A stretch of 64,000 nt of DNA, from NCBI RefSeq assembly GCF_904831005.1, contig NZ_LR882982.1, positions 806,001 to 870,000 on the forward strand. The letters are read 5' to 3'. Below the pieces are notes generated by a model. That model was given only the letters and a program-made list of their open reading frames with translations, searched no databases and was not told the DNA's origin. The number at the start of each line of letters is the position of its first letter. Position 1 is the first letter of the stretch. Both the position numbers and the translations under genes were made by a program. Positions 1-53,049 of this stretch are shown one piece after another. Source of the DNA: Microbacterium hydrocarbonoxydans (GTDB lineage: Bacteria > Actinomycetota > Actinomycetes > Actinomycetales > Microbacteriaceae).

Positions 1-62
1 TGCACGTCGGCAGCGAGCATGTGGACGGTGTTGGAACCGATGTCGAGAACTCCGAGGCGCAC
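1..62 (-). CDS. Ppx/GppA family phosphatase, N-terminal fragment
   Basis: The minus strand from a GTG at 62 reads MRLGVLDIGSNTVHMLAADV and runs off the window. The DIGSNT phosphate-1 motif right after the start is typical of exopolyphosphatase/guanosine-pentaphosphate phosphohydrolases of the ASKHA fold. These act on polyphosphate or pppGpp in the cytoplasm. Only about 20 residues are visible, so the exact activity (Ppx or GppA type) cannot be decided. The gene is divergent from coaA, and both start within a 37-base gap. Confidence 0.75.
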   Translation of the reverse strand, partial: MRLGVLDIGSNTVHMLAADV

Positions 63-86
63 GGATAGACACTACCGCTGCGCCGT

Positions 87-92
87 TACGAT
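87..92 (+). promoter_or_regulatory. -10 box of coaA (leaderless type)
   Basis: TACGAT lies exactly 6 bases before the GTG at 99, so transcription should begin at or next to the start codon. No Shine-Dalgarno sequence is present, and this supports the GTG start. Confidence 0.55.
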
Positions 93-98
93 GTATCC

Positions 99-1043
99 GT
101 GACCACCGTCGACCCCACGCTGCCGCTGTCCCCGTATCGGGAGATCGGCCGCGCTGAATGGGCGCGGCTCGCCGCAGGACTCGATCAGCCTCTCACCGAG
201 ACCGAGGTCGTCGAGCTCCGCGGCATCGGAGATCGACTCGACCTGACCGAGGTGCGCGAGGTCTACCTTCCCCTGAGCCGTCTGCTCAGCCTGTATGCCA
301 CCGCGACGAAGCGCCTCGGCGCCGCGACGAGCTCGTTCCTGCAGGAGGACGACACGACGACTCCGTTCGTGGTCGGTGTCGCCGGCTCGGTCGCCGTCGG
401 CAAGTCGACGATCGCACGACTGCTGCGCGAGCTCATGAGCCGGTGGCCGGGCACGCCGCGGGTCGAGCTCGTCACGACCGACGGCTTTCTGCACTCCAAC
501 GCCGAACTCGAGCGTCGGGGCCTCATGGACCGCAAGGGCTTCCCGGAGTCGTACGATCGCCGGGCGCTGATCGAGTTCCTCACCGAGGTCAAGAGCGGTG
601 CCGCCGAAGTGCGCGCGCCCTTCTATTCGCACATGCGGTACGACATCGTCCCTGACGCGCACGTGGTGGTGCGTCGACCCGACGTCGTGATCGTCGAGGG
701 ACTCAACGTGCTGCAGCCGCCCCCGGCGCCGAACGACGTCGCCGTGAGCGACCTCTTCGACTTCTCTATCTTCGTCGATGCCGACACCGCGCACATCGAG
801 AGATGGTACGTCGATCGGTTCCTCGCACTGCGCGAGGGAGCGTTCTCCAACCCGTCCTCGTACTTCAACGTGTTCGCCCACCTCACCGATGACGAAGCCA
901 TCACGACCGCTCTCGGGTATTGGAACGAGATCAACATGCCGAATCTCGTCGAGAACGTGATGCCCACCAAGCATCGAGCCCGGCTGGTGCTCAACAAGGG
1001 CGTCGATCACAGCGTCGAGAGCGTGCTGCTCCGCAAACTCTGA
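99..1043 (+). CDS. coaA: type I pantothenate kinase
   Basis: 314 residues from GTG, the normal length for bacterial type I PanK. The enzyme phosphorylates pantothenate with ATP, the first and regulated step of coenzyme A synthesis, in the cytoplasm. The Walker A loop GSVAVGKST lies near residues 97-105. It is followed by the family motifs TTDGFLHSN and GFPESYD, then YDIVPD and VIVEGLNVLQ, all in the order expected for CoaA. The C-terminal NLVENVMPTKHRARLVL block is also characteristic. The gene stands alone ahead of glmS with a 65-base gap that holds the glmS promoter. Function is very secure. Confidence 0.97.
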   Translation: MTTVDPTLPLSPYREIGRAEWARLAAGLDQPLTETEVVELRGIGDRLDLTEVREVYLPLSRLLSLYATATKRLGAATSSFLQEDDTTTPFVVGVAGSVAVGKSTIARLLRELMSRWPGTPRVELVTTDGFLHSNAELERRGLMDRKGFPESYDRRALIEFLTEVKSGAAEVRAPFYSHMRYDIVPDAHVVVRRPDVVIVEGLNVLQPPPAPNDVAVSDLFDFSIFVDADTAHIERWYVDRFLALREGAFSNPSSYFNVFAHLTDDEAITTALGYWNEINMPNLVENVMPTKHRARLVLNKGVDHSVESVLLRKL

Positions 1044-1095
1044 GCCCGGAGGCGTCGGTCGCGGTTCGTTCGGGCTCTTCGCAAAATCCCGCCCT

Positions 1096-1101
1096 TACGC
1101 T
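1096..1101 (+). promoter_or_regulatory. -10 box of glmS (leaderless type)
   Basis: TACGCT ends 7 bases before the ATG at 1109. No Shine-Dalgarno sequence lies in between. This favours ATG 1109 over any upstream in-frame start. Confidence 0.5.
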
Positions 1102-1108
1102 TGATCAC

Positions 1109-2956
<1,848 letters not shown>

Positions 2957-20509: not shown

Positions 20510-21568
20510 ATGAGAGCCGTATATATGTCTCAGGATGCTCCCCGCGTCCTCGTCGTCGATGACGACCCCGACGTCGCCCTGCTCGTGAAGACCGTGCTCG
20601 AGAGACGCGCGGGCTGCGAGGTCGCGGTCGAACACGACGGCCGCTCCGCTGTCGAGCGACTCGAGAACTTCGCGGCGGACGCGGTCGTGACGGACATCGA
20701 GATGCCCGGTCTCGACGGTCTCGAGCTGCTGGCGGAGCTGCGTCGCAGCGATCCGCTGCTCCCGGTCATCGTGATGACGGCGCATGTCTCGGTCGAGTAT
20801 GCGGTCTCGGCGCTGCGCGCTCAGGCGGACGAGTTCCTCACGAAGCCACTCGACAACGCGAAGCTCGTCGAGGCCGTCACCCGCCTCGTGACGGAGGGCC
20901 GCGCACGCCGCGAAGCCAACCGCTCGAAGGAGGTCGTGCTCGCCATCGGCGCGCATCCCGACGATGTCGAGATCGGCGTCGGCGGACTCCTCGCGGCGCA
21001 TGCCCAGGCCGGCGACTCGATCACCATCCTGACCCTGTCGCGTGGTGCACGCGGGGGAGACGCCGACAGCCGGCAGCACGAATCGCTCGCGTCGGCCGAG
21101 ATGCTCGGCGCTCGGCTGTTCGTCAAGGACCTCATCGACACCGAGATCTCGGGTGGGGGCGCCACGGTGCGTCTGATCGAAGAGGTCGTGCAGGAGGTGC
21201 AGCCGACCATCGTCTACACGCACTCGTCGAACGACCGGCACCAGGACCACCGCGCCGTGAGCGAGGCGACGATCGCCGCGACCCGACGGGTCGGAACCGT
21301 CGCCTGCTACCAGAGCCCCTCGGCGACGATCGACTTCCGCCCGACGCGCTTCGTGCGCATCGACCAGTACATCTCGCAGAAGCTGCGGCTGCTCGAATGC
21401 TTCGGCTCGCAGACCGCGACCAGGGACTACCTCGACCCCGACTTCGTGACCGCCACCGCCCGGTACTGGTCGCGCTTCGGAGGAGGAGCGGCTGTGGAGC
21501 CGCTCGAGGTCGTTCGTGAGACCGCCGAGTTCATCGGCGCCCATGAACTCACTCGACGGGAGAGCTGA
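20510..21568 (+). CDS. receiver domain fused to PIG-L family deacetylase
   Basis: 352 residues from ATG 20510; ATG 20525 is an alternative start. Residues 12-125 are a CheY-like receiver: acidic pocket VVDDDP, phospho-acceptor Asp62 in VTDIEMPG, Thr90 and Lys112 in FLTKPL. Residues 143-352 are a PIG-L/LmbE zinc deacetylase with AHPDDVEIG (148-156) and the second metal site NDRHQDHRAV (241-250). PIG-L enzymes remove acetyl groups from GlcNAc-containing molecules. There is no DNA-binding domain, so phosphorylation probably controls the enzyme itself. It is the first gene of a seven-gene overlapping unit. Confidence 0.9.
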   Translation: MRAVYMSQDAPRVLVVDDDPDVALLVKTVLERRAGCEVAVEHDGRSAVERLENFAADAVVTDIEMPGLDGLELLAELRRSDPLLPVIVMTAHVSVEYAVSALRAQADEFLTKPLDNAKLVEAVTRLVTEGRARREANRSKEVVLAIGAHPDDVEIGVGGLLAAHAQAGDSITILTLSRGARGGDADSRQHESLASAEMLGARLFVKDLIDTEISGGGATVRLIEEVVQEVQPTIVYTHSSNDRHQDHRAVSEATIAATRRVGTVACYQSPSATIDFRPTRFVRIDQYISQKLRLLECFGSQTATRDYLDPDFVTATARYWSRFGGGAAVEPLEVVRETAEFIGAHELTRRES

Positions 21569-22557
21569 TGACCGCTCGTGTACTGGTGACCGGCGCAGGA
21601 GGACCCGCCGGGGTCGCCGTGATCCGCTCGCTTCTGCGGCGCTCCGACCTCGAGGTCTTCGCCGCCGACATGGACGGGTGGGCGAGCGGCATCTACCTCG
21701 TGCCCTCGACGCATCGACGCCTGGTGCCGCCCGGACGCGATGACGACTTCGTGCCCGCGATCGCCCGTATGGTCGCCGAGGATGGACTCGACCTCGTGAT
21801 CTCGACAGTCGACGTCGAGCTCGCGGCGCTCGCCGGTCGACGCGAGGAGCTGGCGCCGGCCGTGCTCGCCGCGCCGTCGCAGGACACGCTCTCGGTCGCG
21901 CTCGACAAGCTGCTGCTCGCCGAGCGCTGCGAGGCGACAGGTCTCACTCCGCGCACCGTGCTCGCGGGCCCCGATGCGCAGGCGGTCGACTGGGAGTTCC
22001 CCGTCTTCGCCAAGCCGCGTCAGGGGGCGGGCAGCCGCGGGGTGCGTCTGGTGCCCGACCGTGCGGCGCTCGACGCCCTGCCCGACGACGAGGGGCTCAT
22101 CGTGCAGGACTTCCTGCCCGGCGAGGAGTACTCGGTCGACGTCATCGCCGATGCCGCGGGCTCGGTGGTGGCAGCCGTGCCGCGCACCCGCGCGAGAGTC
22201 GACTCCGGCGTGGCGATCGCGGGACGCACGGTGCACGACGAGGAGCTCGAGACCGCCGCCGCATCCATCGCGCGGGCCATCGGGCTGGTCGGCGTCGCGA
22301 ACGTGCAACTTCGTCGAGACCGAGCCGACCGCGCCGTGCTCCTCGAAGTGAACCCGCGCTTTCCCGGCGCGCTTCCGCTCACGATCGCCGCGGGGGTCGA
22401 CATCCCCTCGCTCGTCGCCGACCTCTTCCTCGGTCGCGAGCTGCCGTCGACCGTCGCGTTCCGCGAAGTCGCCTCGGTGCGGTTCCTCGAGGATGTGATC
22501 GTCGAGGTGGACGAGATCCTCGTCTCCGAGCACGCGGGGCATCAGGAGGAACTGTGA
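21568..22557 (+). CDS. ATP-grasp domain ligase (CarB-like)
   Basis: 329 residues; the ATG overlaps the preceding TGA. The N-terminal Rossmann-like region begins VLVTGAGGPAGVAVIRSLL. The ATP-grasp core has FPVFAKPRQGAGSRGVRLV, the hinge IVQDFLPGEEYSVDV, and the metal-binding LLEVNPRFPGALPLT. Such proteins form acyl-phosphate intermediates and make amide bonds, for example adding an amino acid to a sugar or peptide. The substrate cannot be read from the sequence. Its place between a deacetylase and a glycosyltransferase suggests envelope polymer modification. Confidence 0.85.
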   Translation: MTARVLVTGAGGPAGVAVIRSLLRRSDLEVFAADMDGWASGIYLVPSTHRRLVPPGRDDDFVPAIARMVAEDGLDLVISTVDVELAALAGRREELAPAVLAAPSQDTLSVALDKLLLAERCEATGLTPRTVLAGPDAQAVDWEFPVFAKPRQGAGSRGVRLVPDRAALDALPDDEGLIVQDFLPGEEYSVDVIADAAGSVVAAVPRTRARVDSGVAIAGRTVHDEELETAAASIARAIGLVGVANVQLRRDRADRAVLLEVNPRFPGALPLTIAAGVDIPSLVADLFLGRELPSTVAFREVASVRFLEDVIVEVDEILVSEHAGHQEEL

Positions 22558-23267
22558 CGCACGCCCTGTTGCGAGGAGACCACCACGTCCATTCGACGTT
22601 CTCGGATGACGCTGTCTCGACCCTGGCCGAGAACGTCGACGCCGCCGCTGCGGCGGGGCTCACGACAGTGCGCCTCGTCGATCACGTGCGTCAGTCCACG
22701 GCGTGGGTGCCCGACTACCTCGCCGCGGTGCGCGCGCTGCGCGTCCCCGACGGACTCACGGTGCTGACCGGGGTCGAGGCGAAGATCCTCGACGCCGCGG
22801 GCACGCTCGACATCCCCGAGCTGCCGACCGGTATCGATCGCATCCTCATCGCCGACCATCAGTTCCCCGGGATCGACGGTCCGCTCGGTCCGACCGCGGT
22901 GCGGGAGAGGATCGACGGCGGCTGGGCGACGGACGACGTGCTCGACCAGCTCGTCTCGGCTCTGATCGCGTCGATGCGCCGGCATCCGGGCAACCAGCTC
23001 GCGCACTGCTTCTCGATCCTGCCCAAGATCGGCCTGTCCGAGGGCGACCTCGGCGCTGAACGCGTCTCGGCCTGGGCACAGGCCGCTGCGGCGACCGACA
23101 CCATGGTCGAGGTGAATGAGAAGTGGGGGTGCCCCGGCATCCCTCTGCTCGACGCTCTGCGTCGTGCGGGCGCCGAGATCGTGGCATCGACCGACAGCCA
23201 CGTCGCATCCGACGTCGGACGCTATTCGCGCGTCAGTGAGATGCTCGACACCTGGGAGGGACGCTGA
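22554..23267 (+). CDS. PHP domain phosphoesterase
   Basis: 237 residues from GTG 22554, overlapping the upstream stop. The metal-binding motif GDHHVHSTFSDDA opens the protein, as in PHP-family histidinol phosphatases and polymerase-associated PHP domains. LVDHVRQ, GVEAKIL and the final ASTDSHVASDVGRY supply the other conserved His/Asp/Glu residues. It probably hydrolyses a phosphate monoester. hisJ-type histidine synthesis is unlikely, as no his gene is near; a role in the surrounding cluster is inferred from overlap only. Confidence 0.85.
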   Translation: MTHALLRGDHHVHSTFSDDAVSTLAENVDAAAAAGLTTVRLVDHVRQSTAWVPDYLAAVRALRVPDGLTVLTGVEAKILDAAGTLDIPELPTGIDRILIADHQFPGIDGPLGPTAVRERIDGGWATDDVLDQLVSALIASMRRHPGNQLAHCFSILPKIGLSEGDLGAERVSAWAQAAAATDTMVEVNEKWGCPGIPLLDALRRAGAEIVASTDSHVASDVGRYSRVSEMLDTWEGR

Positions 23268-24754
23268 TGGCCGATCTCAGCTGGCTCGAGACAGTCGTCG
23301 TCGTGATCCTTCTGGCCTGCGTGCTGGTCGGGACTCTTCCGGTGATCAACACCGGGCTGCAGTTCCTCGTCCTTCCTCTGCACGCGTTCCGGAATCACTA
23401 CGCCAAGGCCGCCCCGCATCATCCGCGCATCGCCGTGCTGATCCCGGCCTGGAACGAGGGGCTGGTGCTGGGACAGGCGATCGAACGCCTGATGCAGCTC
23501 GAGTACCCGGCCGATCGCCTGCGCATCTACGTCATCGACGACGCATCGACCGACGACACGCCTGAGGTCGTCGCGGCGAAGGCGGCGGCGTTCCCCGGAC
23601 GCGTGGTGCACCTGCGCCGCGACAAGGGCGGCGAGGGCAAGGCCCACACGCTGAACCACGGACTCGACATCGTGCTGGCCGATGACTGGACCGAAGCGGT
23701 TCTCATCATGGACGCCGATGTGATCTTCGCCCGCGACTCGCTGCGCAAGATGAGCAGGCACCTCGCCGACGAGAAGGTCGGGGCGGTCACCGCCTACATC
23801 GCCGAGGGCAGCCGTGACCGCAACTACCTGACCCGGTTCATCGCGATCGAGTACGTGATCGGGCAGCTCTCGGCCCGTCGCACGCAGAACGTCGGGGGAG
23901 CGATCGCCTGTCTGGCCGGTGGTGCGCAACTGCACTCGAGGGCGAACCTCGAAGCCATCGGCGGGCGGATCCCGACCGGCACCCTGGCGGAGGACACGAT
24001 GACGACGTTCGAGGGCCAGCTGGCCGGACGCCGCATGGTCTTCGAGCCGCACGCCGTGGTGCTGGCCGAGGAGCCCCGCACGATCGACAGCCTGTGGAAG
24101 CAGCGTCTGCGGTGGGCCAGGGGCAATGTGCAGCTGACCTCGATCTACCGCCATCTGTGGTTCCGGCCCAGCCGTGAGCACAACCTGGGGAGCTTCGCCT
24201 TCGGCCTCGCCTGGTTCACGATCCTGCTGCTGCCCGCGTTCATGGTGCTCGCCGCTACGGCGCTGCTCGTGCTGCTCATCCTGCACAGCGAGATCGCCGA
24301 GTTCGTCTTCCGATTCATGTGGATCGCCGCCGCCTGCATCTATCTCTTCTCGATGCTCTATGCGGTGCAACTCGACGGCCGCATCGGCCGGCAGTCCTGG
24401 CGGGAGGCTCTGATGTTCCCGGGACTCGGCGCCCTGATCCTCATGGCGATCGCCCTGTTCCCGTGGCTGTTCGAGCAGGGGCTCAGTGACCTCGGACTCG
24501 CCGTCACCGACGAGACCCGGTTCACCTGGGCCGTCATCTTCTACCTGTGGGGACCGATCTCCATGCTCGGCATCTGGCTCGCCCGTGTGGTGGAGTCGCT
24601 GCCGGGCGGACGCTTCTTCGCCGGCCTCCTGCTCTACGTCTGCGGGTACGGCTCGCTGCTGTGCGCCATCACCGTCGACTCGTACATCAAGGAGTGGCGT
24701 CATGCCGACGCCGCATGGATCAAGACCGAGAAGATCGGACGGGTCGACTCATGA
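23267..24754 (+). CDS. processive family 2 glycosyltransferase, membrane-bound
   Basis: 495 residues. A helix near 10-35, a cytoplasmic GT-A domain (52-300), then five or six membrane segments. The catalytic set is complete: Asp91/92 (VIDDAST), DAD 149-151 (LIMDADV), acceptor-base region LAEDTMT (Asp243), and QRLRW (279-283). This D,D,D,QxxRW pattern is that of processive beta-glycan synthases such as cellulose, hyaluronan and poly-N-acetylglucosamine synthases. The sugar is not decided by sequence. The neighbouring PIG-L deacetylase makes an N-acetylated amino-sugar polymer an attractive inference. Confidence 0.9.
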   Translation: MADLSWLETVVVVILLACVLVGTLPVINTGLQFLVLPLHAFRNHYAKAAPHHPRIAVLIPAWNEGLVLGQAIERLMQLEYPADRLRIYVIDDASTDDTPEVVAAKAAAFPGRVVHLRRDKGGEGKAHTLNHGLDIVLADDWTEAVLIMDADVIFARDSLRKMSRHLADEKVGAVTAYIAEGSRDRNYLTRFIAIEYVIGQLSARRTQNVGGAIACLAGGAQLHSRANLEAIGGRIPTGTLAEDTMTTFEGQLAGRRMVFEPHAVVLAEEPRTIDSLWKQRLRWARGNVQLTSIYRHLWFRPSREHNLGSFAFGLAWFTILLLPAFMVLAATALLVLLILHSEIAEFVFRFMWIAAACIYLFSMLYAVQLDGRIGRQSWREALMFPGLGALILMAIALFPWLFEQGLSDLGLAVTDETRFTWAVIFYLWGPISMLGIWLARVVESLPGGRFFAGLLLYVCGYGSLLCAITVDSYIKEWRHADAAWIKTEKIGRVDS

Positions 24755-24894
24755 CCGAAGCACCTTCGAGAAGCGCCGAGGAGGAGGAGATCGCCGCCGA
24801 TGCGCGTCGAGAGAAGCTCCTGATACCTCAGGCGCTCCTCGCCCTCGGAGTCGTCGTCGTCGTCGTGATCGTGCGAGAGCTGTTCCTGCGATGA
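24751..24894 (+). CDS. 47-residue single-pass membrane protein
   Basis: The ATG at 24751 overlaps the glycosyltransferase stop, and its own stop overlaps the next start by ATGA. It reads a charged amphipathic N-terminus (SAEEEEIAADARREK) and one hydrophobic segment (LLALGVVVVVVIV) with a short RELFLR tail. Its coupling on both sides supports a real gene. It may be an accessory subunit of the glycosyltransferase, like the small membrane partners of some polysaccharide synthases, but no homology is recognised. Confidence 0.7.
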   Translation: MTEAPSRSAEEEEIAADARREKLLIPQALLALGVVVVVVIVRELFLR

Positions 24895-25238
24895 CCGGGC
24901 GGCCTCTGGCCCTCGTGGTCGAGGACAGCGCAGATCAGACGGCGCTTCTGCAGCGATACCTCGACCGCGAGGGCTTCGACGTGTTCGCGGCGGTGGATGC
25001 GGAATCCGCGATCGCCGCGTTCGCCACGATCACGCCGGCCGTCGCCGTGATCGACCTCCTGCTCCCGGGTATCAGCGGCACCGAGTGCGCGCGCCTGATC
25101 AAGGAGAGGTATCCGGAGTGCTTCCTCATCGTGAGCTCGGTGCTCGATGAGGCCGACTACCCCATCGCGGACGCCGCGCTCCCGAAGCCCATCATCGGCG
25201 CCGATCTGCGTGCTCTCCTGCGGGACCTGCCCCGATGA
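24891..25238 (+). CDS. single-domain response regulator
   Basis: 115 residues, the size of one receiver domain, with nothing after it. Acidic pair Glu11/Asp12 (VVEDS), phospho-acceptor Asp55 (VIDLLLPG), Ser82/83 and Lys99 (LPKP). As a stand-alone CheY-like protein it would relay phosphate or bind a partner rather than DNA. It overlaps the kinase gene that follows, its most likely donor. Confidence 0.9.
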   Translation: MTGRPLALVVEDSADQTALLQRYLDREGFDVFAAVDAESAIAAFATITPAVAVIDLLLPGISGTECARLIKERYPECFLIVSSVLDEADYPIADAALPKPIIGADLRALLRDLPR

Positions 25239-27016
25239 CCCCGACGAGCACCGTGCAGCAGTCGATGGAGCTCAGCTGGCGCCGCTACTTCGACAACCCG
25301 ACCCCGCTCATGAAGCAGGGGCCGACGGTGATCGCGACAGCCGTCGCGGCCGTGCTCATGTGGACCGTGCCGGGCATCCCGGTGACCGACACCGCGGTCG
25401 TCGTCTTCGGGCTCATCGTCATCGCCGCGGTCACCGCATTCGCGGCCGTGCTCTCGGTGCGTGGCGTGTACGAGGGCTGGGTCGTGATGCTCGTGCCGAT
25501 GATCGACATCATCGCACTGGGCGCCATCAGGGCGGGCACCGGCGGTCCGGCATCGCTCTTCGGGTCGTTCGTGCTGCTGCCCGTGATCTGGATCGCGGCC
25601 GCGCCCGGACGCCGGCAGGTCGTCATCGTCGGCGTGCTGTCGTCGATCGCCCTGATCATGCCGAACATCATCGACCCGCCCGAGGACCCGGCCGCATGGC
25701 TGCGCGGCGTGGTGGGGCCGCTCGTCTTCGCGACGGTGGGCGCCATCGTCAACGAACTGTCGCGTCAGCAGCGCCTTCGCACCACGCAGGCCGAGGCGCA
25801 CGTGGTGGAGCGCACGGCCGCTCTCGCCGCCAACGAGCAGATCCTCGAGCAGCTGAGGGCCAGCGAGCAGCAGTACCGCTCGCTCTCGGAGTCGTTCACG
25901 AGCCTCTGGAACTCGATCACCGGGCAGGCGGTCATCGCCACAGACGACGCCGGAGTGATCACCGCGTGGAACCCGGGCGCTGTGCGTCTGCTCGGCATGG
26001 CAGTGCCGGACGCACTCGCCGGTGTGCGGATCGATCGGTTCTTCCCCTCGCACGCACTGGCGCAGTTCGTGACCGACGAGGTCGGCCACGCCGATGACGG
26101 CCTCCACCCGGGGCTGCGCGCCCTCTTCGACGACGCCGACGCGGGTCTGCCGGTGGACTCGCACGTCGACGTCGCGACGGTCGGCGGATCGACCGTGCCT
26201 GCGCGGGTGACCGTCACCCCGTACCAGGACGCCGACGGCTCGCGACGCGGATATCTGCTCGTGATCACCGACGAGACCCGGGCCGTCGAGGTCGCGCGCA
26301 TGAAGGATGAGTTCGTCGGGATGATCTCGCACGAGCTGCGCACTCCGTTGAGCGCGATCATCGGGTTCCTCGATCTTCTGCAGAACGACCCCGCGCAGCC
26401 GCTCACGAGCGATCAGCTGGAGTTCGTCGGGATCATCGAACGCAACGCGCAGCGGTTGCTGAACCTCGTCGGCGACCTGCTCTTCACCGCTCAGGTCGAG
26501 TCGGGCCGATTCCCGCTGGAGCGCGGCGAGGCCGACGTGGTCGAGCTCGTGCGCAGCGCCGTGGTCTCGGCAGGACCCCATGCGCAGCGGGAGGGCATCG
26601 AACTCGTCGCCGAGGTGCCGACGGCGCCGGTGCGGGTGCTGCTGGACTCCGGGCGGATCGGACAGGCCATCGACAACCTGCTCTCGAACGCCATCAAGTT
26701 CACGGCGTCGGGAGGACGCGTCATCGCCAGCGTGCGCACGGTCGAGGGGGCGGTCGAGCTCGCGGTGCGAGACACCGGTGTCGGAATCCCCGAAGACGAG
26801 CAGGGGATGCTGTTCACCCGCTTCTTCCGTGCGTCGACGGCAACCCGCAACGCCGTGCCCGGCGTCGGACTCGGGCTCACGATCACCAGGGCGATCGTGC
26901 TCGCGCACGGCGGCACGATGGATGTCACGAGCAAGGAGGGCGTCGGCACCGAGTTCCGGATGCTGCTGCCGATGGCTCCGCGCACAGAGGCCATCCAGGT
27001 CATCGGCCGCCGGTGA
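25235..27016 (+). CDS. membrane sensor histidine kinase with PAS domain
   Basis: 593 residues. The N-terminal about 190 residues hold six or so hydrophobic segments, forming a membrane sensor. A short coiled linker (QAEAHVVERTAALAANEQIL) leads to a PAS domain (about 210-345). HisKA follows with FVGMISHELRTPLS (His366). The ATPase domain shows IDNLLSNAIKFTASGG, VRDTGVGIPEDE and GVGLGLTITRAIV. Start overlaps the receiver gene. It likely phosphorylates the lone receiver and the receiver-deacetylase fusion, both lacking DNA-binding parts. Confidence 0.93.
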   Translation: MTPTSTVQQSMELSWRRYFDNPTPLMKQGPTVIATAVAAVLMWTVPGIPVTDTAVVVFGLIVIAAVTAFAAVLSVRGVYEGWVVMLVPMIDIIALGAIRAGTGGPASLFGSFVLLPVIWIAAAPGRRQVVIVGVLSSIALIMPNIIDPPEDPAAWLRGVVGPLVFATVGAIVNELSRQQRLRTTQAEAHVVERTAALAANEQILEQLRASEQQYRSLSESFTSLWNSITGQAVIATDDAGVITAWNPGAVRLLGMAVPDALAGVRIDRFFPSHALAQFVTDEVGHADDGLHPGLRALFDDADAGLPVDSHVDVATVGGSTVPARVTVTPYQDADGSRRGYLLVITDETRAVEVARMKDEFVGMISHELRTPLSAIIGFLDLLQNDPAQPLTSDQLEFVGIIERNAQRLLNLVGDLLFTAQVESGRFPLERGEADVVELVRSAVVSAGPHAQREGIELVAEVPTAPVRVLLDSGRIGQAIDNLLSNAIKFTASGGRVIASVRTVEGAVELAVRDTGVGIPEDEQGMLFTRFFRASTATRNAVPGVGLGLTITRAIVLAHGGTMDVTSKEGVGTEFRMLLPMAPRTEAIQVIGRR

Positions 27017-32113: not shown

Positions 32114-35100
32114 ATGATGTCCGCTCCCGACGCCGCGAACCACGTGGTTCCCGGTTCAGATCGCAGGGGTCGGGGGCGCATCGGCGTCCTGGCTGCCACC
32201 TGCGTCGCCGCTCTGGGCGCCAGCGCCCTGATCGCGGCCCCCGCTTCCGCCGACGTCGCAGGGACGGGGGTGGTCATCAACGAGGCGTACCTCTCGGGCG
32301 GCAGCGCAGGCTCGGCGTTCACGAACAAGTTCGTCGAGCTCTACAACCCGACGTCGCAGCCCGTCTCGCTCGACGGCTTCTCGCTGCAGTACCGCTCTGC
32401 GACCGGCACGGCCGCCTTCACCGGGGTGGCGCCGCTGACGGGCAGCATCCCGGCCGGTGGTCACTACCTGGTGCAGGGCGGCAGCAACGGCGCGAACGGC
32501 GCAGCGCTGCCGACAGCCGACGCGGTGGGTCCTCTCAACCCGAGCGGAACGAACGGCACGCTCGCCTTGGTGAAGGGCACCGCAGCCGTCACGCTCGCTC
32601 CGGGTTCGGTGGCGGGCGTCGACGGCGTGATCGACGTGCTGGGCTACGGCACGTCGAACACCTTCGAGACCACGGCGGCGACGCCGCCCGCGGGCAACAC
32701 CGATGTGAAGTCTCTGAACCGTACGGCAGGCGTCGACACGGACGACAACAGCGCGGACTTCACGCTCTCAGCGTCGATCACTCCTCAGAACTCCGGCGGA
32801 ACGGACCCGGGAACCGACCCCGGCACCGACCCGGGCACCGACCCGGGCGCCGACCCTGTGAAGGCGTCGATCGCCGAGGTGCAGGGCGTCACCGACGTCT
32901 CGCCGCTGAGCGGTCAGACCGTCACCGTCGAGGGCGTCGTGACAGCGGACTTCCGCACCGGCGGGTACAAGGGTGTCGTCATCCAGACCCAGGGCTCGGG
33001 CGGCGAGAACGACTCGACTCCGGGAGCCTCCGACGGCGTCTTCGTGTATCTCAACGCCCTCGCGCCGACACTGGCGATCGGCGACCTGATCTCGGTCACG
33101 GGATCGGTCGGGGAGTACTTCGGACAGACGCAGATCAATCCGAGCTCGCTCGCAGGTATCTCGGTGCTGCAGGCCGGTGCAGGCGTGCCCGCTCTCACCC
33201 CGCTGCCCGACACCGTGGTCGGTGCCGACCGTGAGCAGTACGAGAACATGTACGTGGCGCCGGCAGGCACCTATCGACTCGCCTCGAGCCACCAGCTGTA
33301 CAACTTCGGCACCCTGTGGCTCAACGCCGGTGACGAGCTGAACGTCAAGAGCACCGAGGTCGCCCGCCCGGGTGATGAGGCGGCGGCGATCGCGGCGGCC
33401 AATCGCGCGAACCGCATCCTGCTCGACGATGCGTGGTCGATCCAGGTGACGAACAGCGGACACCCGAACGACCAGCCGTACTTCACGAAGGACCAGGTCG
33501 TCCGCAACGGCGACACGGTCGAGTTCAGCGACAGCGGGTACGTGCTGCAGTACGGCTTCGACGACTGGCGTCTGCAGCCCGTGCTGCCGATCGACAGCAC
33601 GTCTCCGGCCGAGCTGAAGGCCGGGTTCACCGCGACCGATCCGCGCGCGGATTCGGCGCCGCAGGTCGGCGGCGACGTGCAGGTCGCGTCCTTCAACGTC
33701 TTCAACTACTTCACGACGCTGAAGAGCGAGAACTCGAATGCGCGAGGAGCGGCGAACGCCGAGCAGTTCGCGATCCAGAAGTCGAAGATCGTCGCGGCGA
33801 TCAACGGCCTCGATGCCGAGATCGTCTCGCTGATGGAGATCGAGAACTCGATCAAGCTCGGGGGCTCACTCGATGAGGCACTCGCCGACCTGGTCGACGG
33901 ACTCAACGATGCGCTGGGCGCCGACGAGTGGGACTACGTGCGCACACCGGACGAGCTGAACGACGCGACGACGACCGACTTCATCACGAGCGCCATCATC
34001 TACAAGAAGGATGACGTCTCGACGGTCGGCGACAGCCTCACCGTCAGGGACGAGTCGGTGTGGGGCAACGCGCGTGAGCCGATCGCCCAGGCGTTCGACG
34101 TGGACGGCAGGATCGTCACCGTCGTCTCGAACCACTTCAAGTCCAAGTCCGCCCCCGAGGGAGGCGGCGCAGAGCCCGCCGACGGCCAGGGATTCTTCAA
34201 CGCGGACCGTGTCGCGCAGGCGAACTCGCTCCTCGGATTCACCGAGGAGATCGAGGCGACGACCGGCAGCAGCGACATGCTGCTGATCGGAGACTTCAAC
34301 GCCTACGCCAAGGAAGACCCCATCGAGGTCTTCACCGGTGCCGGGTGGAGCGACGTGGCGCGCGAGAAGGCCCCGGAGCAGCACACCTATTCGTTCGACG
34401 GTGAGCTCGGTTCGCTCGATCACGTGCTCGCGTCGCCGTCGCTCGCGGCATCGATCACGGGGGCAGGCGTCTGGAGCATCAACTCGCCGGAGTGGAGCGA
34501 TCGCGGCTACGCGTTCGCGGCCGCAGAGGCCGGCACCCCGTTCCGCTCCAGCGACCACGACCCGATCGTCGTGGGTGTCTCCTCCGACATCCCGCCGGTG
34601 AGCATCGACGTCGTCACCATGAACGACTTCCACGGCCGCATCGAGGCCGACGGCGCAGCCGCCGGTGCAGCAGTCGTCGCGGGAGCGGTGCAGCAGTTCC
34701 GCAGTGAGAACCCCAACACGATCTTCGCCGGAGTCGGAGATCTGATCGGCGCCTCGACGTTCACGTCGTTCATCAACGACGACAACCCGACGATCGACGC
34801 GCTCAACGCGGCCGGTCTCGATGTGAGCGCGGCAGGAAACCACGAGTTCGATCAGGGCTGGGAAGACCTGCGGGACCGCGTGCAGGATCGCGCGGAATGG
34901 GAGTACATCTCCTCCAACGTGTTCCTCACCGAGACCGGGGAGCCCGCGCTCGCACCGGCCTGGGTCAAGGAGCTCGACGGCGTGAAGGTCGGCTTCATCG
35001 GCGCCGTGACCGAAGACCTCGACTCGCTCGTGTCCCCCGAGGGCATCGCCGACCTCGAGGTGCGCAGCATCGCGGACTCGGTGAATGCGGTGGCCGACGA

Positions 35101-36772
35101 CCTGCGCGACGGTGACGCCTCGAACGGTGAGGCGGATGTCGTCATCCTCCTCGTACACGAGGGTGCCGCGAGCAGCGAACTCTCGAGCATCACCCCGGAG
35201 TCGCCCCTCGGCGAGATCGTCTACGGAGTGGACGACGACGTGAACGCGATCGTGTCGGCGCACACGCACCTCGCCTACAACCACGTGATCGACGGGCGTC
35301 CCGTGATCTCGGCCGGCCAGTACGGCGAGAACCTCGGGCTGATGAACCTCCAGGTCGATCCGAAGACGAAGGATCTGATCTCGATCACGAACGAGATCAA
35401 GCCGCTCACGGCGAACGGTCAGGCGCTCTACCCGGCCGTCACCGAGGTCGCCGACATCGTCGCGAAGGCCAAGGCCGACGCCGACGTGCTCGGCGCCGTC
35501 AAGGTCGGCGACATCACCTCTGACTTCAATCGCGCGCGTCAGGCGAACGGTGCGGAGAACCGAGGCGGCGAATCCACGATCGGCAACTTCGTGGCAGACG
35601 TGCAGAAGTGGTCCACGGGTGCGGACATCGCCCTCATGAACCCGGGCGGAATCCGCGCGAACCTCACGTTCGCGTCATCGGGTGCCGGCGATCCGAACGG
35701 CAATGTCACGTACCGCGAGGCGGCGACGGTGCAGCCGTTCGCCAACACGCTGGTGACGCTCACCATGACCGGCGCCGAACTGAAGGGTGTCCTCGAAGAG
35801 CAGTGGCAGCCGGCGGGCGCCGCGCGTCCGTTCCTGAAGCTGGGCGTCTCGAAGGGGCTGGTGTACACCTACGACCCGGCAGCTGCTGCGGGATCACGCA
35901 TCACCTCCCTCACCCTCGACGGCACGGCGATCGATCCGGCGGCGGACTACACGGTCGCGGCGAACTCCTTCCTGGCTGCGGGCGGTGACAACTTCTTCAC
36001 CTTCCGTGAGGGGGAGAACAAGCGAGACACCGGAAAGATCGACCTGCAGTCGATGGTCGACTGGTTCGACGCCAACAAGACCGCGACTCCCGACCTCGCT
36101 CAGCGAGCGGTCGGAGTCTCGGTCAGTGCACCGGATGCCGACGGATACAGCGCCGGCGACCAGGTCACAGTCGCCCTCTCGTCGCTGGCGTTCAGCGCCG
36201 GGGAACAGGCGCCGGGAGCAGTCACTCTGTCTCTGGGCGATGCTCAGCTGGCCACCGGGGCAGTCGATCCCACGATCGTCGACACGACCGACGAGGTCGG
36301 GCGAGCGACGCTCGCCTTCACGGTGCCGTCGGGTGTCTCGGGAGACCAGTGGCTCACCGTCGCGGTCGCCGGGACAGGGACGACCGCACAGGTGCCGTTC
36401 ACGATCGTCGGAGAGGAACCCGTGGAATTCGCGGGATCCATCGACCTCGGATCCTCGAAGGTGGCGGCCGGCAAGAAGCTGGTGATCACCGGGGAGGGCT
36501 ACGAGTCGGCAGAGACCGTGACGATCGAGCTGCGCCCCAAGAAGGGCGCACCGCTCGAGGTCGGCACCGTGCAGGTCGCGGCTGACGGCACGTTCTCGAC
36601 GGCCGTCACGGTTCCCAAGAACGCGCAGCCGGGAAAGTACACGGTCGCGGTCGCGCAGGCCGACGGAGACGAGGCCACGGCCACAGTCACCGTCAACCGC
36701 GCTGGAGGCATCGGCGGCATCATCGGAGGCATCATCGATTGGCTGTGGGACCTCATCAACGGCTGGTTCTGA
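32114..36772 (+). CDS. secreted ExeM/NucH-type endonuclease fused to 5'-nucleotidase
   Basis: 1552 residues; start ATG 32114 (or 32117) after GAGGAGA. Signal peptide (18-45, ending ASADVAG). A lamin-tail domain (about 48-185, VVINEAYLSG), a DPGT linker, an OB-like region, then an endonuclease/exonuclease/phosphatase domain (about 520-825: ASFNVFNYF, LIGDFNAYAKEDP, SSDHDPIVVG). From 831 a calcineurin-like 5'-nucleotidase: TMNDFHGRI, GVGDLIGAS, AAGNHEFDQGW, VSAHTHLAYN, with its C-terminal substrate domain (PGGIRANL, 1130-1330). Two beta-sandwich repeats and a hydrophobic GIIGGIIDWLWDLINGW tail end it. It would break down extracellular DNA and then nucleotides to nucleosides and phosphate outside the cell. 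Confidence 0.93.
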   Translation: MMSAPDAANHVVPGSDRRGRGRIGVLAATCVAALGASALIAAPASADVAGTGVVINEAYLSGGSAGSAFTNKFVELYNPTSQPVSLDGFSLQYRSATGTAAFTGVAPLTGSIPAGGHYLVQGGSNGANGAALPTADAVGPLNPSGTNGTLALVKGTAAVTLAPGSVAGVDGVIDVLGYGTSNTFETTAATPPAGNTDVKSLNRTAGVDTDDNSADFTLSASITPQNSGGTDPGTDPGTDPGTDPGADPVKASIAEVQGVTDVSPLSGQTVTVEGVVTADFRTGGYKGVVIQTQGSGGENDSTPGASDGVFVYLNALAPTLAIGDLISVTGSVGEYFGQTQINPSSLAGISVLQAGAGVPALTPLPDTVVGADREQYENMYVAPAGTYRLASSHQLYNFGTLWLNAGDELNVKSTEVARPGDEAAAIAAANRANRILLDDAWSIQVTNSGHPNDQPYFTKDQVVRNGDTVEFSDSGYVLQYGFDDWRLQPVLPIDSTSPAELKAGFTATDPRADSAPQVGGDVQVASFNVFNYFTTLKSENSNARGAANAEQFAIQKSKIVAAINGLDAEIVSLMEIENSIKLGGSLDEALADLVDGLNDALGADEWDYVRTPDELNDATTTDFITSAIIYKKDDVSTVGDSLTVRDESVWGNAREPIAQAFDVDGRIVTVVSNHFKSKSAPEGGGAEPADGQGFFNADRVAQANSLLGFTEEIEATTGSSDMLLIGDFNAYAKEDPIEVFTGAGWSDVAREKAPEQHTYSFDGELGSLDHVLASPSLAASITGAGVWSINSPEWSDRGYAFAAAEAGTPFRSSDHDPIVVGVSSDIPPVSIDVVTMNDFHGRIEADGAAAGAAVVAGAVQQFRSENPNTIFAGVGDLIGASTFTSFINDDNPTIDALNAAGLDVSAAGNHEFDQGWEDLRDRVQDRAEWEYISSNVFLTETGEPALAPAWVKELDGVKVGFIGAVTEDLDSLVSPEGIADLEVRSIADSVNAVADDLRDGDASNGEADVVILLVHEGAASSELSSITPESPLGEIVYGVDDDVNAIVSAHTHLAYNHVIDGRPVISAGQYGENLGLMNLQVDPKTKDLISITNEIKPLTANGQALYPAVTEVADIVAKAKADADVLGAVKVGDITSDFNRARQANGAENRGGESTIGNFVADVQKWSTGADIALMNPGGIRANLTFASSGAGDPNGNVTYREAATVQPFANTLVTLTMTGAELKGVLEEQWQPAGAARPFLKLGVSKGLVYTYDPAAAAGSRITSLTLDGTAIDPAADYTVAANSFLAAGGDNFFTFREGENKRDTGKIDLQSMVDWFDANKTATPDLAQRAVGVSVSAPDADGYSAGDQVTVALSSLAFSAGEQAPGAVTLSLGDAQLATGAVDPTIVDTTDEVGRATLAFTVPSGVSGDQWLTVAVAGTGTTAQVPFTIVGEEPVEFAGSIDLGSSKVAAGKKLVITGEGYESAETVTIELRPKKGAPLEVGTVQVAADGTFSTAVTVPKNAQPGKYTVAVAQADGDEATATVTVNRAGGIGGIIGGIIDWLWDLINGWF

Positions 36773-49695: not shown

Positions 49696-52600
49696 ATGTC
49701 CCGCCTGCACTCCGCGGCTGCGGTCACGACGGTCTGCGCCCTCAGCGCCGCCGCCCTACTCGCCGTGCCGCTCGCCGCCACCGGCGCCGAATCCGGCGTC
49801 CGCATCAACGAAGTCGAGTCCAGCGGGGGAGTGCCCGGCGACTGGATCGAGTTCACGAACACCTCTGACGCCGCGGTCGATCTGAGCGGCTTCGTCGTCA
49901 AGGACGACGGGGAGGACGAGTCGTACGTGTTCCCCGACGGCACCCTCATCGAGCCCGGGGCGTACCTCGTGCTCGACGAGCTCGCTGCGGGTGCCGGTGA
50001 CTTCGCCTTCGGCCTCGGCAAGGCCGACCAGGTGCGCCTGTTCGACCAGAGCGCCGCGCTCGTCGACGAGACCTCGTGGACGGCTCATGCCGCGGCGACG
50101 TGGGGATCGCGCGAGGTCGCAGGCATCGTCGAGTGGGCTGACACGTCCGAGGCGACGAAGGGGGCGGCCAATGTGTTCGCCACCGACACTCCGGCGGGCG
50201 GCTCGATCGCGATCAACGAGGTCGACTCGCAGCCGGCCGACTGGGTGGAGTTCTTCAACGCGGGCGATGCCCCTCTCGACATCTCGGGCTACGAGATCCG
50301 AGACAACTCCGACGACCACCGGTGGCAGTTCCTGCCCGGAACCGAGATCGGCGCGGGGGCGTTCCTCGTGGTCGAGGAGGGCACGATCGGTCTGGTCGAC
50401 GGCGTGCAGACGGCTTTCCGCGATCCGATCGGCATCGGCAGCGCCGATCGCATCCGCCTGTTCGACGCCGCGGGCGCCTTGATCGACGACACCCTCGCGT
50501 GGAGCGGCCACGCCGCGATCGACGGTGACGTCATCGCCGCGACCCTCGCGCGCTGCCCCGACGGCGAGGGCGCCTTCGTGCTCGCACACTCGACTCCGGG
50601 GGCCGCGAACTCGTGCGTCATGCCCGACGTCGTGATCAACGAGATCGAGTCCAACGGCGACGCGACCGACTGGGTCGAGGTGGTCAACACGGGCAGCACG
50701 CCGGTCGATCTCTCGGGCTGGACCGTCATGGACAGCGATCCGGTCGCCCATTCGGCAGAGACGACGCCGCTGCCCGCGGGCTCCGTGCTCGCACCCGGCG
50801 GCTACTTCGTCTTCGATCAGCCGTCGCAGTTCGTGTTCGGTCTGGGCAACGGCGACACCGTCACGCTGCGTGACGCGAACCTCGACGTCGTCGACGAGCA
50901 CGTCTACGCGGCGCACGCCGCCGGCGTTCTCGCGCGCTGTGCGGACGGCAGCGGCGACTTCATCGACATCGCGGTCTCGACCAAGGGCCAGCGCAACGCG
51001 TGCGGGAATCCCGTGCGGATAAACGAGGTCGAGTCCGACGGCGGCTCGCCCGGCGATTGGATCGAACTCGTCAACCCGACCTCAGCGACCATCGATGTCT
51101 CGGGCGTGGTCGTGAAGGACGATGACGACACCCACTCGTACGTCATTCCGGCCTCGACCACGGTGGCCGCCGGCGAGTACCTCGTGATCGAGGGTGCCGA
51201 CCTGGGCTTCGGCCTGGGCGACGGCGACTCCGTGCGTCTGTTCGACGGCGACCTGCTCATCGACTCCACCACGTGGGGTGCGGGGCATGCGGCGACCACG
51301 TGGGGCCGGTGCCCCGACGTCACGGGAGTCTTCGCGGTGACCGCTGAGAGCAGCAAGAACGCGGCGAACATCTGTGCCGGAGAGATCGCCGTGTCTCCGT
51401 GGCCGGGGTCGCAGGAGGTCAGGGTGCTCGACGGCACGCCGACCTTCCTCGAGGACAGCTCAGGGCTCGACGTGCAGGAGACCTCGGACGGCGCGTTCCT
51501 GTGGGCCGTCGACAACGGCGAGGGTCGCATCTGGAAGCTCGAGGTGCACGCCGACGGATCGTTCACGCAGATCGCCGGCTGGGAGTCGGGCAAGCGCGTG
51601 CGGTTCCAGAAGGATGCAGACGTTCCGGGCGCCGCAGGACCCGACACCGAGGGCATCACGGTCGACGGCAACGGGCTCGTCTACGTCGCCTCGGAGCGGG
51701 ACAACAGCGCGAAGGGCGTCAACCGGAACACGATCCTCGCGGTCGACCCCGAGGCGGCTGTGGGCGACCTCGTCGCCCAGCAGGAGTGGGACCTCACAGC
51801 CCTGCTGCCGGCCGTCGGTGCGAACCTCGGCATGGAGGCCGTGCAGTGGGTGCCGGACACCGCCCTCGACGGAGAGCTCTTCGACGTCAACACCGGTGCC
51901 GCATACGAACCGACCGACTACGCCGGTCATGGCGACGGACTGTTCTTCGTCGCGGTCGAGGACAACGGGCACGTCTATGCATTCGCGCTCGCCGCAGACG
52001 GCGGTGCCACGCTCGTCTCGGAGATCGTGCCGGGACTCCCCGGAGTGATGGCGCTCGACTACGACAGCGTCCTCGATGTGCTGTGGGCGGTGTGCGATGA
52101 CGGGTGTCACGGGCAGTCGGCTCAGATCACCCTGAACGGCAGCGACGCGCCCGGCATCTCGCACTTCGCACGGCCCGGCTCGATGCCCGACATCAACAAC
52201 GAGGGATTCGCCACCGGACCCGCTTCGCTCGCGGTCGACGGTCAGCGTCCGGTCTGGTGGTTCGCCGACGGCTTCGCCGCCGAGGCGCTGCGTGCCGGAA
52301 CCCTGCCGTTCGTGCCGGGGGAGAACCCGGGGACGGAGAATCCGGGGACCGAGAATCCGGGGACCGAGAATCCGGGGACCGAGAACCCGGGGACCGAGAA
52401 CCCGGGGACCGAGAACCCGGGGACCGAGAACCCGGGGACCGGGAACCCTGGCACCGAGAACCCTGGCACCGGGAACCCTGGCACCGGGAACCCTGGCACC
52501 GGGAACCCTGGCACCGAGAACCCGGGGAGTGAGAATCCGGGGACCGAGAATCCGGGGACCGAGAACCCGGGGACCGAGAATCCCGGAAGTGAGAACCCTG

Positions 52601-53049
52601 GCTCGGAGAACCCTGGCTCGGAGAACCCGGACGAGGGGCAGCCTCCGCTCCCCGGCTCGGCGCTCACGGACGACAATCGCAACGGTGTCACCGTGAATCC
52701 GTCCGTCGCAGGTCGCGGGGATCGGGTGACGGTCAGCACAGGCATCGCACACGCGGGCGAGCGGCTCGCGATCTGGATGTACTCCGAGCCCTCGTCTCTC
52801 GGAGCGAGCATGGCGTCCGACACCGGCGCGGTGACCGTCACGATTCCCGCAGATGCTCCGCTCGGTGCGCACCGCCTCGCGGCGTATGCAGCCGACGGAT
52901 CTCTCGTCGGCTGGGCGGACGTCACGATCACCGAGCCGCAGGGGCTCGCCGTGACCGGAGGTGAGGTGCCCGCCGTGGCCATCCTCGCGGCGATCATGAT
53001 GCTGATCGCCGGTGGTCTCATCGTGCGCGGGAGACGTCGCGCCGTCTGA
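49696..53049 (+). CDS. sortase-anchored surface protein: four lamin-tail domains, phytase-like domain, NPGTE repeat
   Basis: 1117 residues from ATG 49696 after TCAGGAGC. Signal peptide (1-35, ending ATGAES). Four lamin-tail domains begin at VRINEVESSG, IAINEVDSQP, VVINEIESNG and VRINEVESDG. Residues about 565-870 resemble the esterase-like/phytase-like beta-propeller (SSGLDVQETSDGAFLWAVD, DTEGITVDGNGLVYVASE). Then 20 NPG(T/S)(E/G) units (877-976), an Ig-like domain, and a sorting signal LAVTG (1084) with a membrane helix and RGRRR. LAVTG fits class E sortase of high-GC actinobacteria. It is exposed on the wall; substrate unknown. Confidence 0.9.
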   Translation: MSRLHSAAAVTTVCALSAAALLAVPLAATGAESGVRINEVESSGGVPGDWIEFTNTSDAAVDLSGFVVKDDGEDESYVFPDGTLIEPGAYLVLDELAAGAGDFAFGLGKADQVRLFDQSAALVDETSWTAHAAATWGSREVAGIVEWADTSEATKGAANVFATDTPAGGSIAINEVDSQPADWVEFFNAGDAPLDISGYEIRDNSDDHRWQFLPGTEIGAGAFLVVEEGTIGLVDGVQTAFRDPIGIGSADRIRLFDAAGALIDDTLAWSGHAAIDGDVIAATLARCPDGEGAFVLAHSTPGAANSCVMPDVVINEIESNGDATDWVEVVNTGSTPVDLSGWTVMDSDPVAHSAETTPLPAGSVLAPGGYFVFDQPSQFVFGLGNGDTVTLRDANLDVVDEHVYAAHAAGVLARCADGSGDFIDIAVSTKGQRNACGNPVRINEVESDGGSPGDWIELVNPTSATIDVSGVVVKDDDDTHSYVIPASTTVAAGEYLVIEGADLGFGLGDGDSVRLFDGDLLIDSTTWGAGHAATTWGRCPDVTGVFAVTAESSKNAANICAGEIAVSPWPGSQEVRVLDGTPTFLEDSSGLDVQETSDGAFLWAVDNGEGRIWKLEVHADGSFTQIAGWESGKRVRFQKDADVPGAAGPDTEGITVDGNGLVYVASERDNSAKGVNRNTILAVDPEAAVGDLVAQQEWDLTALLPAVGANLGMEAVQWVPDTALDGELFDVNTGAAYEPTDYAGHGDGLFFVAVEDNGHVYAFALAADGGATLVSEIVPGLPGVMALDYDSVLDVLWAVCDDGCHGQSAQITLNGSDAPGISHFARPGSMPDINNEGFATGPASLAVDGQRPVWWFADGFAAEALRAGTLPFVPGENPGTENPGTENPGTENPGTENPGTENPGTENPGTENPGTGNPGTENPGTGNPGTGNPGTGNPGTENPGSENPGTENPGTENPGTENPGSENPGSENPGSENPDEGQPPLPGSALTDDNRNGVTVNPSVAGRGDRVTVSTGIAHAGERLAIWMYSEPSSLGASMASDTGAVTVTIPADAPLGAHRLAAYAADGSLVGWADVTITEPQGLAVTGGEVPAVAILAAIMMLIAGGLIVRGRRRAV
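52324..52623 (+). repeat. 15-base tandem repeat encoding NPGTE (20 units)
   Basis: Twenty in-frame 15-base units coding NPGTE, NPGTG or NPGSE, with local blocks of identical codon choice (aacccggggaccgag versus aaccctggcaccggg), a sign of recent duplication. The array forms a rigid stalk between the propeller domain and the wall anchor. Confidence 0.95.

What the first reader, a model, noticed from the sequence alone, without database searches (positions are those of the whole stretch)
20510..27016. Seven overlapping genes join two-component signalling directly to polymer enzymes
Every junction in this unit is a start/stop overlap (TGATG, GTGA or ATGA). The order is receiver-PIG-L deacetylase, ATP-grasp, PHP, processive GT2, 47-residue membrane protein, lone receiver, PAS histidine kinase. 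Neither receiver has a DNA-binding domain, so the kinase output should be control of enzyme activity, not transcription. The enzyme set suggests synthesis, deacetylation and amino-acyl decoration of an amino-sugar polymer. I know of no described system with this make-up.
Basis: partly seen in the sequence, partly recalled or inferred. Interest (0 to 1): 0.75.

Follow-up and report, generated by a model that had tools for sequence, protein, structure and literature searches.

The report
Phosphorelay-switched deacetylase in exopolysaccharide operon
Seven overlapping genes appear to let a bacterial sensor switch a sugar-modifying enzyme directly, inside an uncharacterised pathway that probably builds and exports a surface polysaccharide and that recurs from soil actinobacteria to proteobacteria.

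Summary
The seven genes and their six overlapping junctions are real. Gene A probably starts at 20525, giving 347 aa. The unit recurs widely. Orthologs of glycosyltransferase D occur in 39 of 247 genus, 23 of 249 family and 5 of 296 class genomes, and each of those genomes also has a relative of A's PIG-L domain. That holds even in 4 genomes where D lies elsewhere on the chromosome. In Proteobacteria the same GT2, PIG-L and ATP-grasp sit beside a TPR/beta-barrel protein whose best Foldseek match is cellulose exporter BcsC; it is present in 6 of 6 proteobacterial loci with a complete D. This supports an exported polymer. Where B and D were lost, the PIG-L active site decays in 6 of 16 loci, against 0 of 59 loci that keep the enzymes, while receiver residues stay intact. 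Best reading: a synthase-dependent exopolysaccharide pathway, not found in my literature searches, whose cytoplasmic amino-sugar deacetylase is set by phosphorelay. Substrate, polymer and amide decoration are inferred. D's closest solved fold is an archaeal mannosyltransferase, so a glycolipid is the main rival.

The parts
20525..21568 (+). A: receiver fused to PIG-L N-deacetylase (RR-PIG-L); alternative upstream start at 20510
   Evidence: Pfam PF00072 108.9 bits and PF02585 86.6 bits; catalytic residues kept in 59 of 59 fused loci that keep the enzymes; start from homolog lengths and conserved Shine-Dalgarno-like stretch
21568..22557 (+). B: ATP-grasp ligase (PylC / carbamoyl-phosphate-synthase-like)
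   Evidence: PF15632 107.6 bits; nearest PDB sequence 2pn1 E 2e-18, PylC 4ffl E 0.0026; in 58 of 58 loci with complete D
22554..23267 (+). C: PHP-family phosphoesterase, GTG start
   Evidence: PF02811 37 bits; YcdX the one PDB sequence match, E 5e-5; the listed H, E and D residues of its metal site invariant in 32 of 32; in 52 of 58 loci, the other 6 being proteobacterial
23267..24754 (+). D: membrane GT2 with processive-synthase motifs
   Evidence: PF13641 107.9 bits; DD, DxD, ED and QxxRW residues invariant in 42 aligned sequences; AF2 pLDDT 91.6; Foldseek and VIA-align matches to PcManGT, hyaluronan and cellulose synthases
24751..24894 (+). E: 47-aa protein with one C-terminal hydrophobic segment, likely subunit of D
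   Evidence: No Pfam family; hydrophobic ORF directly after D in 51 of 58 loci, 47 with the same 4-bp overlap; still in the A locus in 2 of 4 genomes where D has moved (L043, L052)
24891..25238 (+). F: lone receiver, shortened
   Evidence: PF00072 48.3 bits; D55, S83 and K99 invariant in 29 of 29
25235..27016 (+). G: membrane PAS histidine kinase
   Evidence: PF00512, PF02518, PF13426; phospho-acceptor H366 invariant in 41 of 41; hydrophobic N-terminal region seen by eye, topology not computed

Best explanation
The seven genes encode a synthase-dependent surface-polysaccharide pathway whose sugar chemistry is set directly by a phosphorelay. The membrane kinase G phosphorylates receiver F (in many relatives also a second lone receiver) and the receiver of A. 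Phosphorylation changes the activity of A's cytoplasmic PIG-L domain, which removes N-acetyl from an amino-sugar precursor. B then acylates the freed amine with an amino acid or another carboxylate, C removes a phosphate, and D with small subunit E polymerises the sugar and moves it across the membrane. In diderms a TPR/beta-barrel protein carries the polymer through the outer membrane. Shown by computation: gene order, domains, intact active sites, co-inheritance, the TPR/beta-barrel in Proteobacteria, and linked loss of the enzymes and of the deacetylase active site. Inferred: the substrate, the order of steps, the amide ligation, and the sign of phospho-control.
Against: D's closest solved relative by all three methods is the archaeal mannosyltransferase PcManGT; D scores far below the NCBIfam cut-offs for PgaC and CelA. 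In the barrel's VIA-align list generic porins and TPR proteins fill the 50 rows shown and BcsC is not among them. RR-PIG-L plus kinase persists without B and D in 16 genomes, and 10 of those 16 keep the active site, as do the 9 further minimal loci, so the deacetylase may have another substrate. Receiver residues are degenerate in several loci that keep the enzymes, so phospho-control is not universal. Four loci without a kinase hit above 100 bits keep residues 19, 62 and 112 (L053, L123, L124, L141), although L123 has a divergent hybrid kinase. Mirror-tree values and co-occurrence odds are not corrected for shared ancestry. No substrate or phenotype is known.
Confidence: 0.6

Rival explanations
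1. The pathway makes a decorated glycolipid or small amino-sugar compound, not a polymer. D transfers one sugar to a lipid, PIG-L deacetylates it, and B ligates an amino acid to the amine, as PIG-L plus ligase do in mycothiol and bacillithiol synthesis (recalled).
Against: Processive-synthase residues of D invariant in 42 sequences; TPR/beta-barrel next to D in 6 of 6 proteobacterial loci with complete D, best Foldseek match BcsC; BshB1 NCBIfam cut-off not reached by A (88.8 against 182.5).
Confidence: 0.22
2. RR-PIG-L is mainly a signalling or wall-precursor switch with its own job. B, C, D and E are an accessory module that uses the same operon, and losing it leaves the signalling job intact.
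For: 16 genomes keep A and a kinase without B or D; their receivers keep all three key residues (16 of 16); minimal loci are nested in full clades, so the switch outlives the enzymes (9 changes by parsimony, full ancestral).
Against: Without the enzymes the PIG-L domain diverges faster and loses active-site residues in 6 of 16 loci, against 0 of 59 with enzymes. Every genome with D in three samples has a PIG-L relative.
Confidence: 0.13
3. Ordinary operon packing: unrelated genes sharing a promoter in a GC-rich genome.
For: Short start/stop overlaps are common in actinobacterial operons (recalled); the genus distribution is patchy, 41 of 247.
Against: Conservation of A, B and D across Actinomycetota and Proteobacteria; co-occurrence of unlinked D.
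Confidence: 0.02

Closest known systems
Pga/Ica poly-N-acetylglucosamine systems
   Same: Membrane GT2 synthase with a small membrane partner, an N-deacetylase and, in diderms, a TPR/beta-barrel exporter (Pga make-up partly recalled; PMC9384988 seen in listing only).
   Different: D is far below the PgaC/IcaA cut-off (122.5 against 422.3 bits). The deacetylase is a cytoplasmic PIG-L fused to a receiver. ATP-grasp and PHP have no counterpart there as far as I recall.
Bcs cellulose secretion (BcsA, BcsC)
   Different: No PilZ domain reported in D, CelA cut-off not met (65 against 699.1), phosphorelay to a deacetylase rather than c-di-GMP to the synthase (c-di-GMP control recalled).
REC fused to BcsA-like glycosyltransferase in Methanobacteriaceae
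   Same: A receiver attached to a polysaccharide-type enzyme, so that signalling acts on enzyme activity (PMC5847659, section 14 read).
   Different: There the fused enzyme is the glycosyltransferase and the fusion is confined to three archaeal genera. Here it is the deacetylase, in several bacterial phyla, with kinase and export parts.
Mycothiol / bacillithiol PIG-L pathways (MshB, BshB)
   Same: PIG-L deacetylation of an N-acetylglucosaminide followed by ligation to the amine (recalled); 6p2t BshB among the nearest PDB sequences.
   Different: BshB1 cut-off not met; here a membrane GT2 and, in Proteobacteria, a barrel exporter belong to the unit.

Membership tests
Response regulators with enzymatic output | Receiver domain with intact phospho-acceptor fused to a catalytic domain | tested here: met
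   PF00072 and PF02585 in one ORF; D19, D62, K112 and H149, D151, D152, D246, H247 intact in the window protein
PIG-L / LmbE deacetylases | Family score above gathering and metal/catalytic motif AHPDD...DH | tested here: met
   86.6 bits against 28.2; motif intact in 59 of 59 enzyme-bearing loci
PIG-L / LmbE deacetylases | N-deacetylase activity on an amino sugar | not testable with these tools
   needs enzyme assay
Synthase-dependent exopolysaccharide systems | Membrane GT2 with processive-synthase motifs and synthase-like fold | tested here: met
Synthase-dependent exopolysaccharide systems | In diderms, TPR/beta-barrel outer-membrane exporter encoded with the synthase | tested here: met
   6 of 6 proteobacterial loci with complete D; TPR in Pfam; model with 14 long strands; Foldseek rank 1 BcsC
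Synthase-dependent exopolysaccharide systems | Secreted polymer | not testable with these tools
   no chemistry available
Pga/Ica PNAG synthase | PgaC/IcaA equivalog score (TIGR03937 cut-off 422.3) | tested here: not met
   122.5 bits
Cellulose synthase BcsA | CelA score (TIGR03030 cut-off 699.1) and PilZ domain | tested here: not met
   65 bits; no PilZ among Pfam hits
Bacillithiol deacetylase BshB1 | TIGR04001 cut-off 182.5 | tested here: not met
   88.8 bits
Slam-type TPR/barrel secretion proteins (rival for the diderm barrel) | PF24575 TPR_Slam gathering score 35.2 | tested here: not met
   33.5 bits in L123 and 34.6 in L134, just below the cut-off

The most novel reading that the evidence does not exclude
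A separate class of synthase-dependent exopolysaccharide machine, spread over Actinomycetota and Proteobacteria. Its polymer carries free or amide-capped amino groups, set after translation by a phosphorylated receiver-deacetylase. Several lineages that dropped the polymer enzymes turned the receiver-deacetylase into a catalytically dead signalling output while keeping its phosphorylation site.
Probability: 0.33. Interest if true: 0.85.

Novelty: new variant of a known kind. Interest (0 to 1): 0.66.

Why it matters
Known control of exopolysaccharide synthases runs largely through c-di-GMP or transcription (recalled). Here a histidine kinase would set polymer chemistry within the cell directly, through a deacetylase. 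The natural loss series gives a ready test: full, D-relocated, minimal with active PIG-L, and minimal with dead PIG-L, all within one bacterial family. It also offers a candidate function for a block that public records call only 'response regulator' or 'PIG-L deacetylase'.

Tried and rejected
Anti-phage defence: PADLOC gave only generic hits, SduA to the receiver (E 9e-8) and PDC-M43B to the kinase ATPase (E 5e-6), and none for B-F; rejected. Mobile or plasmid spread: tblastn of A (E<=1e-30) and of a proteobacterial D (E<=1e-40) against 72,556 plasmid records found nothing. RNA elements and tRNAs in the window: none. Clues from unlinked D: neighbours are luciferase-like and FMN reductase, an ABC transporter, or chorismate mutase, with no shared polymer gene. 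Neighbours of minimal loci are nitrilase, aminotransferase, HtrA-like and similar genes, with no hint of function.

An early conservation count (44 of 44 intact catalytic residues, D246 43 of 44) was biased. My HPDD motif filter had silently dropped L062, L070, L071, L072 and L076; one search put them back and changed the conclusion. L075 (minimal, no kinase, receiver decayed, active site intact) was left out. With all 25 minimal loci the count is 6 of 25 against 0 of 59, Fisher p 4e-4.

Receiver changes: 7 of the 59 enzyme-bearing loci. Six of these (L082, L111, L114, L129, L134, L135) have no kinase hit above 100 bits within 10 kb (L082 is cut by a contig end upstream). The seventh, L116, has a divergent hybrid kinase. 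But L053, L123, L124 and L141 also lack such a hit and keep residues 19, 62 and 112, so kinase loss and receiver decay are associated, not strictly tied. G286 carries a second D copy (58%) elsewhere. VIA-align of the barrel model listed OmpG, FadL-type porins and TPR proteins; BcsC was not in the 50 rows shown.

Literature: ten searches gave no description of a receiver-PIG-L fusion or of this gene set. All listings only, except PMC5847659 (passages and section 14), PMC4558063 (passages) and PMC1183210 (passages); none of the three mentions PIG-L or LmbE. Galperin 2010 on response-regulator outputs (PMC3086695) is not held, so a mention there is not excluded.
Full report
Observation. The window lies in a 3.72-Mb single-contig genome whose nearest protein records are named Microbacterium. 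Seven ORFs from 20510 (better 20525) to 27016 overlap at all six junctions, by 1, 4, 1, 4, 4 and 4 bp. Pfam gives receiver+PIG-L, ATP-grasp, PHP, GT2, none, receiver, and PAS/HisKA/HATPase. guaB lies upstream and an ABC-F gene downstream. The A start at 20525 is preferred because most listed homologs are about 347 aa and a Shine-Dalgarno-like stretch precedes it in the window and four relatives.

Distribution without reference to gene order. A relative of the PIG-L domain occurs in 41 of 247 genus genomes (E<=1e-20), 43 of 249 family genomes (24 of 85 genera) and 13 of 296 class genomes (E<=1e-15). D at E<=1e-50 occurs in 39, 23 and 5 of the same samples, and every D genome is among the PIG-L genomes (genus and family lists compared; the class list by eye). 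Chance odds by hypergeometric are 2e-43, 5e-21 and 7e-8, and 3e-9 counted by genus. They ignore shared ancestry, and the samples share some genomes. In the class sample one of the five, G026, has a PIG-L without a receiver (L086).

Linked and unlinked. Sixty loci were fetched and mapped. In four genomes of one genus, A-B-C-(receiver)-kinase remain together while D (56-58% identical) is elsewhere. Leifsonia loci L119 and L143 have the same reduced form, so that genus may be Leifsonia (inference). Small gene E stays behind in two of the four. Sixteen genomes have A plus receivers plus kinase only; none has a D ortholog (best 52.6 bits) or a B match. C was not searched genome-wide. On a tree of the fused protein these minimal forms are nested among full blocks, so the enzymes were lost several times.

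A natural test of the pathway. With all loci aligned, the active-site residues H149, D151, D152, D246 and H247 are unchanged in 59 of 59 fused loci that keep the enzymes (26 full, 4 with D unlinked, 8 outgroup, 21 others). Among the 16 minimal loci six have changes: L062 D151S, L067 D246S, L070 H149Y with D246V, L071 and L072 D151N, and L076 H149R, D152E, H247S (Fisher p 4e-5; 2e-4 if L071/L072 count once; 4e-4 with all 25 minimal loci). Receiver residues D19, D62 and K112 are intact in all 16. Distance to outgroups rises mainly in the PIG-L domain (0.481 to 0.709; receiver 0.735 to 0.800). So deacetylase activity is firmly held where the enzymes are present, while phospho-signalling is kept with the kinase. 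Ten of the 16, and the nine other minimal loci, keep the active site, so an extra role is possible.

Beyond the family. A, B, D without PHP occurs in Rhodospirillales, Burkholderiales, Marinicella and two Legionella species, and A, B with contig ends or no complete D in Alphaproteobacteria and Lysobacterales MAGs. Occultella and Serinicoccus have A, B, C, D with a degenerate N-terminal domain in place of the receiver. A is 58 of 58 by construction. Gene trees of A, B and D correlate (r 0.90, 0.85, 0.82 over 39 loci), uncorrected for species history.

Diderm clue. In all 6 proteobacterial loci with a complete D, D is followed (directly or after E) by a protein with TPR repeats (4 scanned, 3 with D, all TPR) and a C-terminal barrel domain. 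The barrel model hits 8 of 144 loci, all proteobacterial; the two others, L125 and L132, lack a complete D on their contigs. The AlphaFold2 model of L114's protein has pLDDT 87, TPR helices to residue 211 and 14 long strands. Foldseek ranks E. coli BcsC first (E 1.6e-12, TM 0.49 by query) and PelBC fourth; VIA-align lists generic porins and TPR proteins. In L114 a histidine phosphatase (PF00300) follows B where Actinobacteria have PHP; ORFs of similar length and place occur in L125 and L129 (not scanned). That suggests C's job is phosphate removal.

Receivers. F keeps D55, S83 and K99 (29 of 29) and the kinase H366 (41 of 41). Receiver residues of A are altered in 7 of 59 enzyme-bearing loci, six of them without a strong kinase hit within 10 kb, but four other such loci keep them. 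The PIG-L stays intact in all, so phosphorylation may tune rather than enable it.

Novelty. Ten literature searches and three papers examined in part gave no description of a receiver-PIG-L fusion or of this set. The nearest precedent is a receiver fused to a BcsA-like enzyme in three archaeal genera (PMC5847659). I rate it a new variant of synthase-dependent exopolysaccharide systems.

Noticed in passing
L123:1673-2224 and 9-1688, minus strand: In a Marinicella MAG a haem-NO-binding (HNOB, PF07700) protein and a hybrid kinase-receiver ORF are divergent from the RR-PIG-L gene, suggesting nitric oxide as an input there (one search list for neighbours, for HNOB).
   Followed up: partly
L087 and L088: More distant PIG-L, GT2 and ATP-grasp cluster; in L087 a UDP-GlcNAc 2-epimerase and a HAD hydrolase are next to it and a rho-like gene upstream. 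Similar weak sets occur in Actinoplanes, Geodermatophilus and Catenulispora.
   Followed up: partly
L077, L081, L093: PIG-L, ATP-grasp, GT2 cluster in which the PIG-L has an N-terminal hydrophobic stretch in place of a receiver (seen by eye).
   Followed up: no
L085:4683-10110: A receiver-PIG-L follows a PAS kinase and an OmpR-type regulator and precedes ABC exporter genes, a different setting for the same fusion.
   Followed up: no
L118:12627-15606: Two D-type glycosyltransferases in tandem in an Actinomycetes MAG.
   Followed up: no
L136:1195-3273: A GlmS-like protein (SIS and glutamine amidotransferase domains) lies about 6 kb from a receiver-PIG-L in a Myxococcales MAG without D on the stretch.
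   Followed up: no
window 32114-36772 and 49696-53049, plus strand: Two large ORFs (1552 and 1117 aa) with lamin-tail domains; the first also has 5'-nucleotidase and metallophosphatase domains.
   Followed up: no
L068 / L149: A minimal locus followed by three further kinases of the same type in a row.
   Followed up: no
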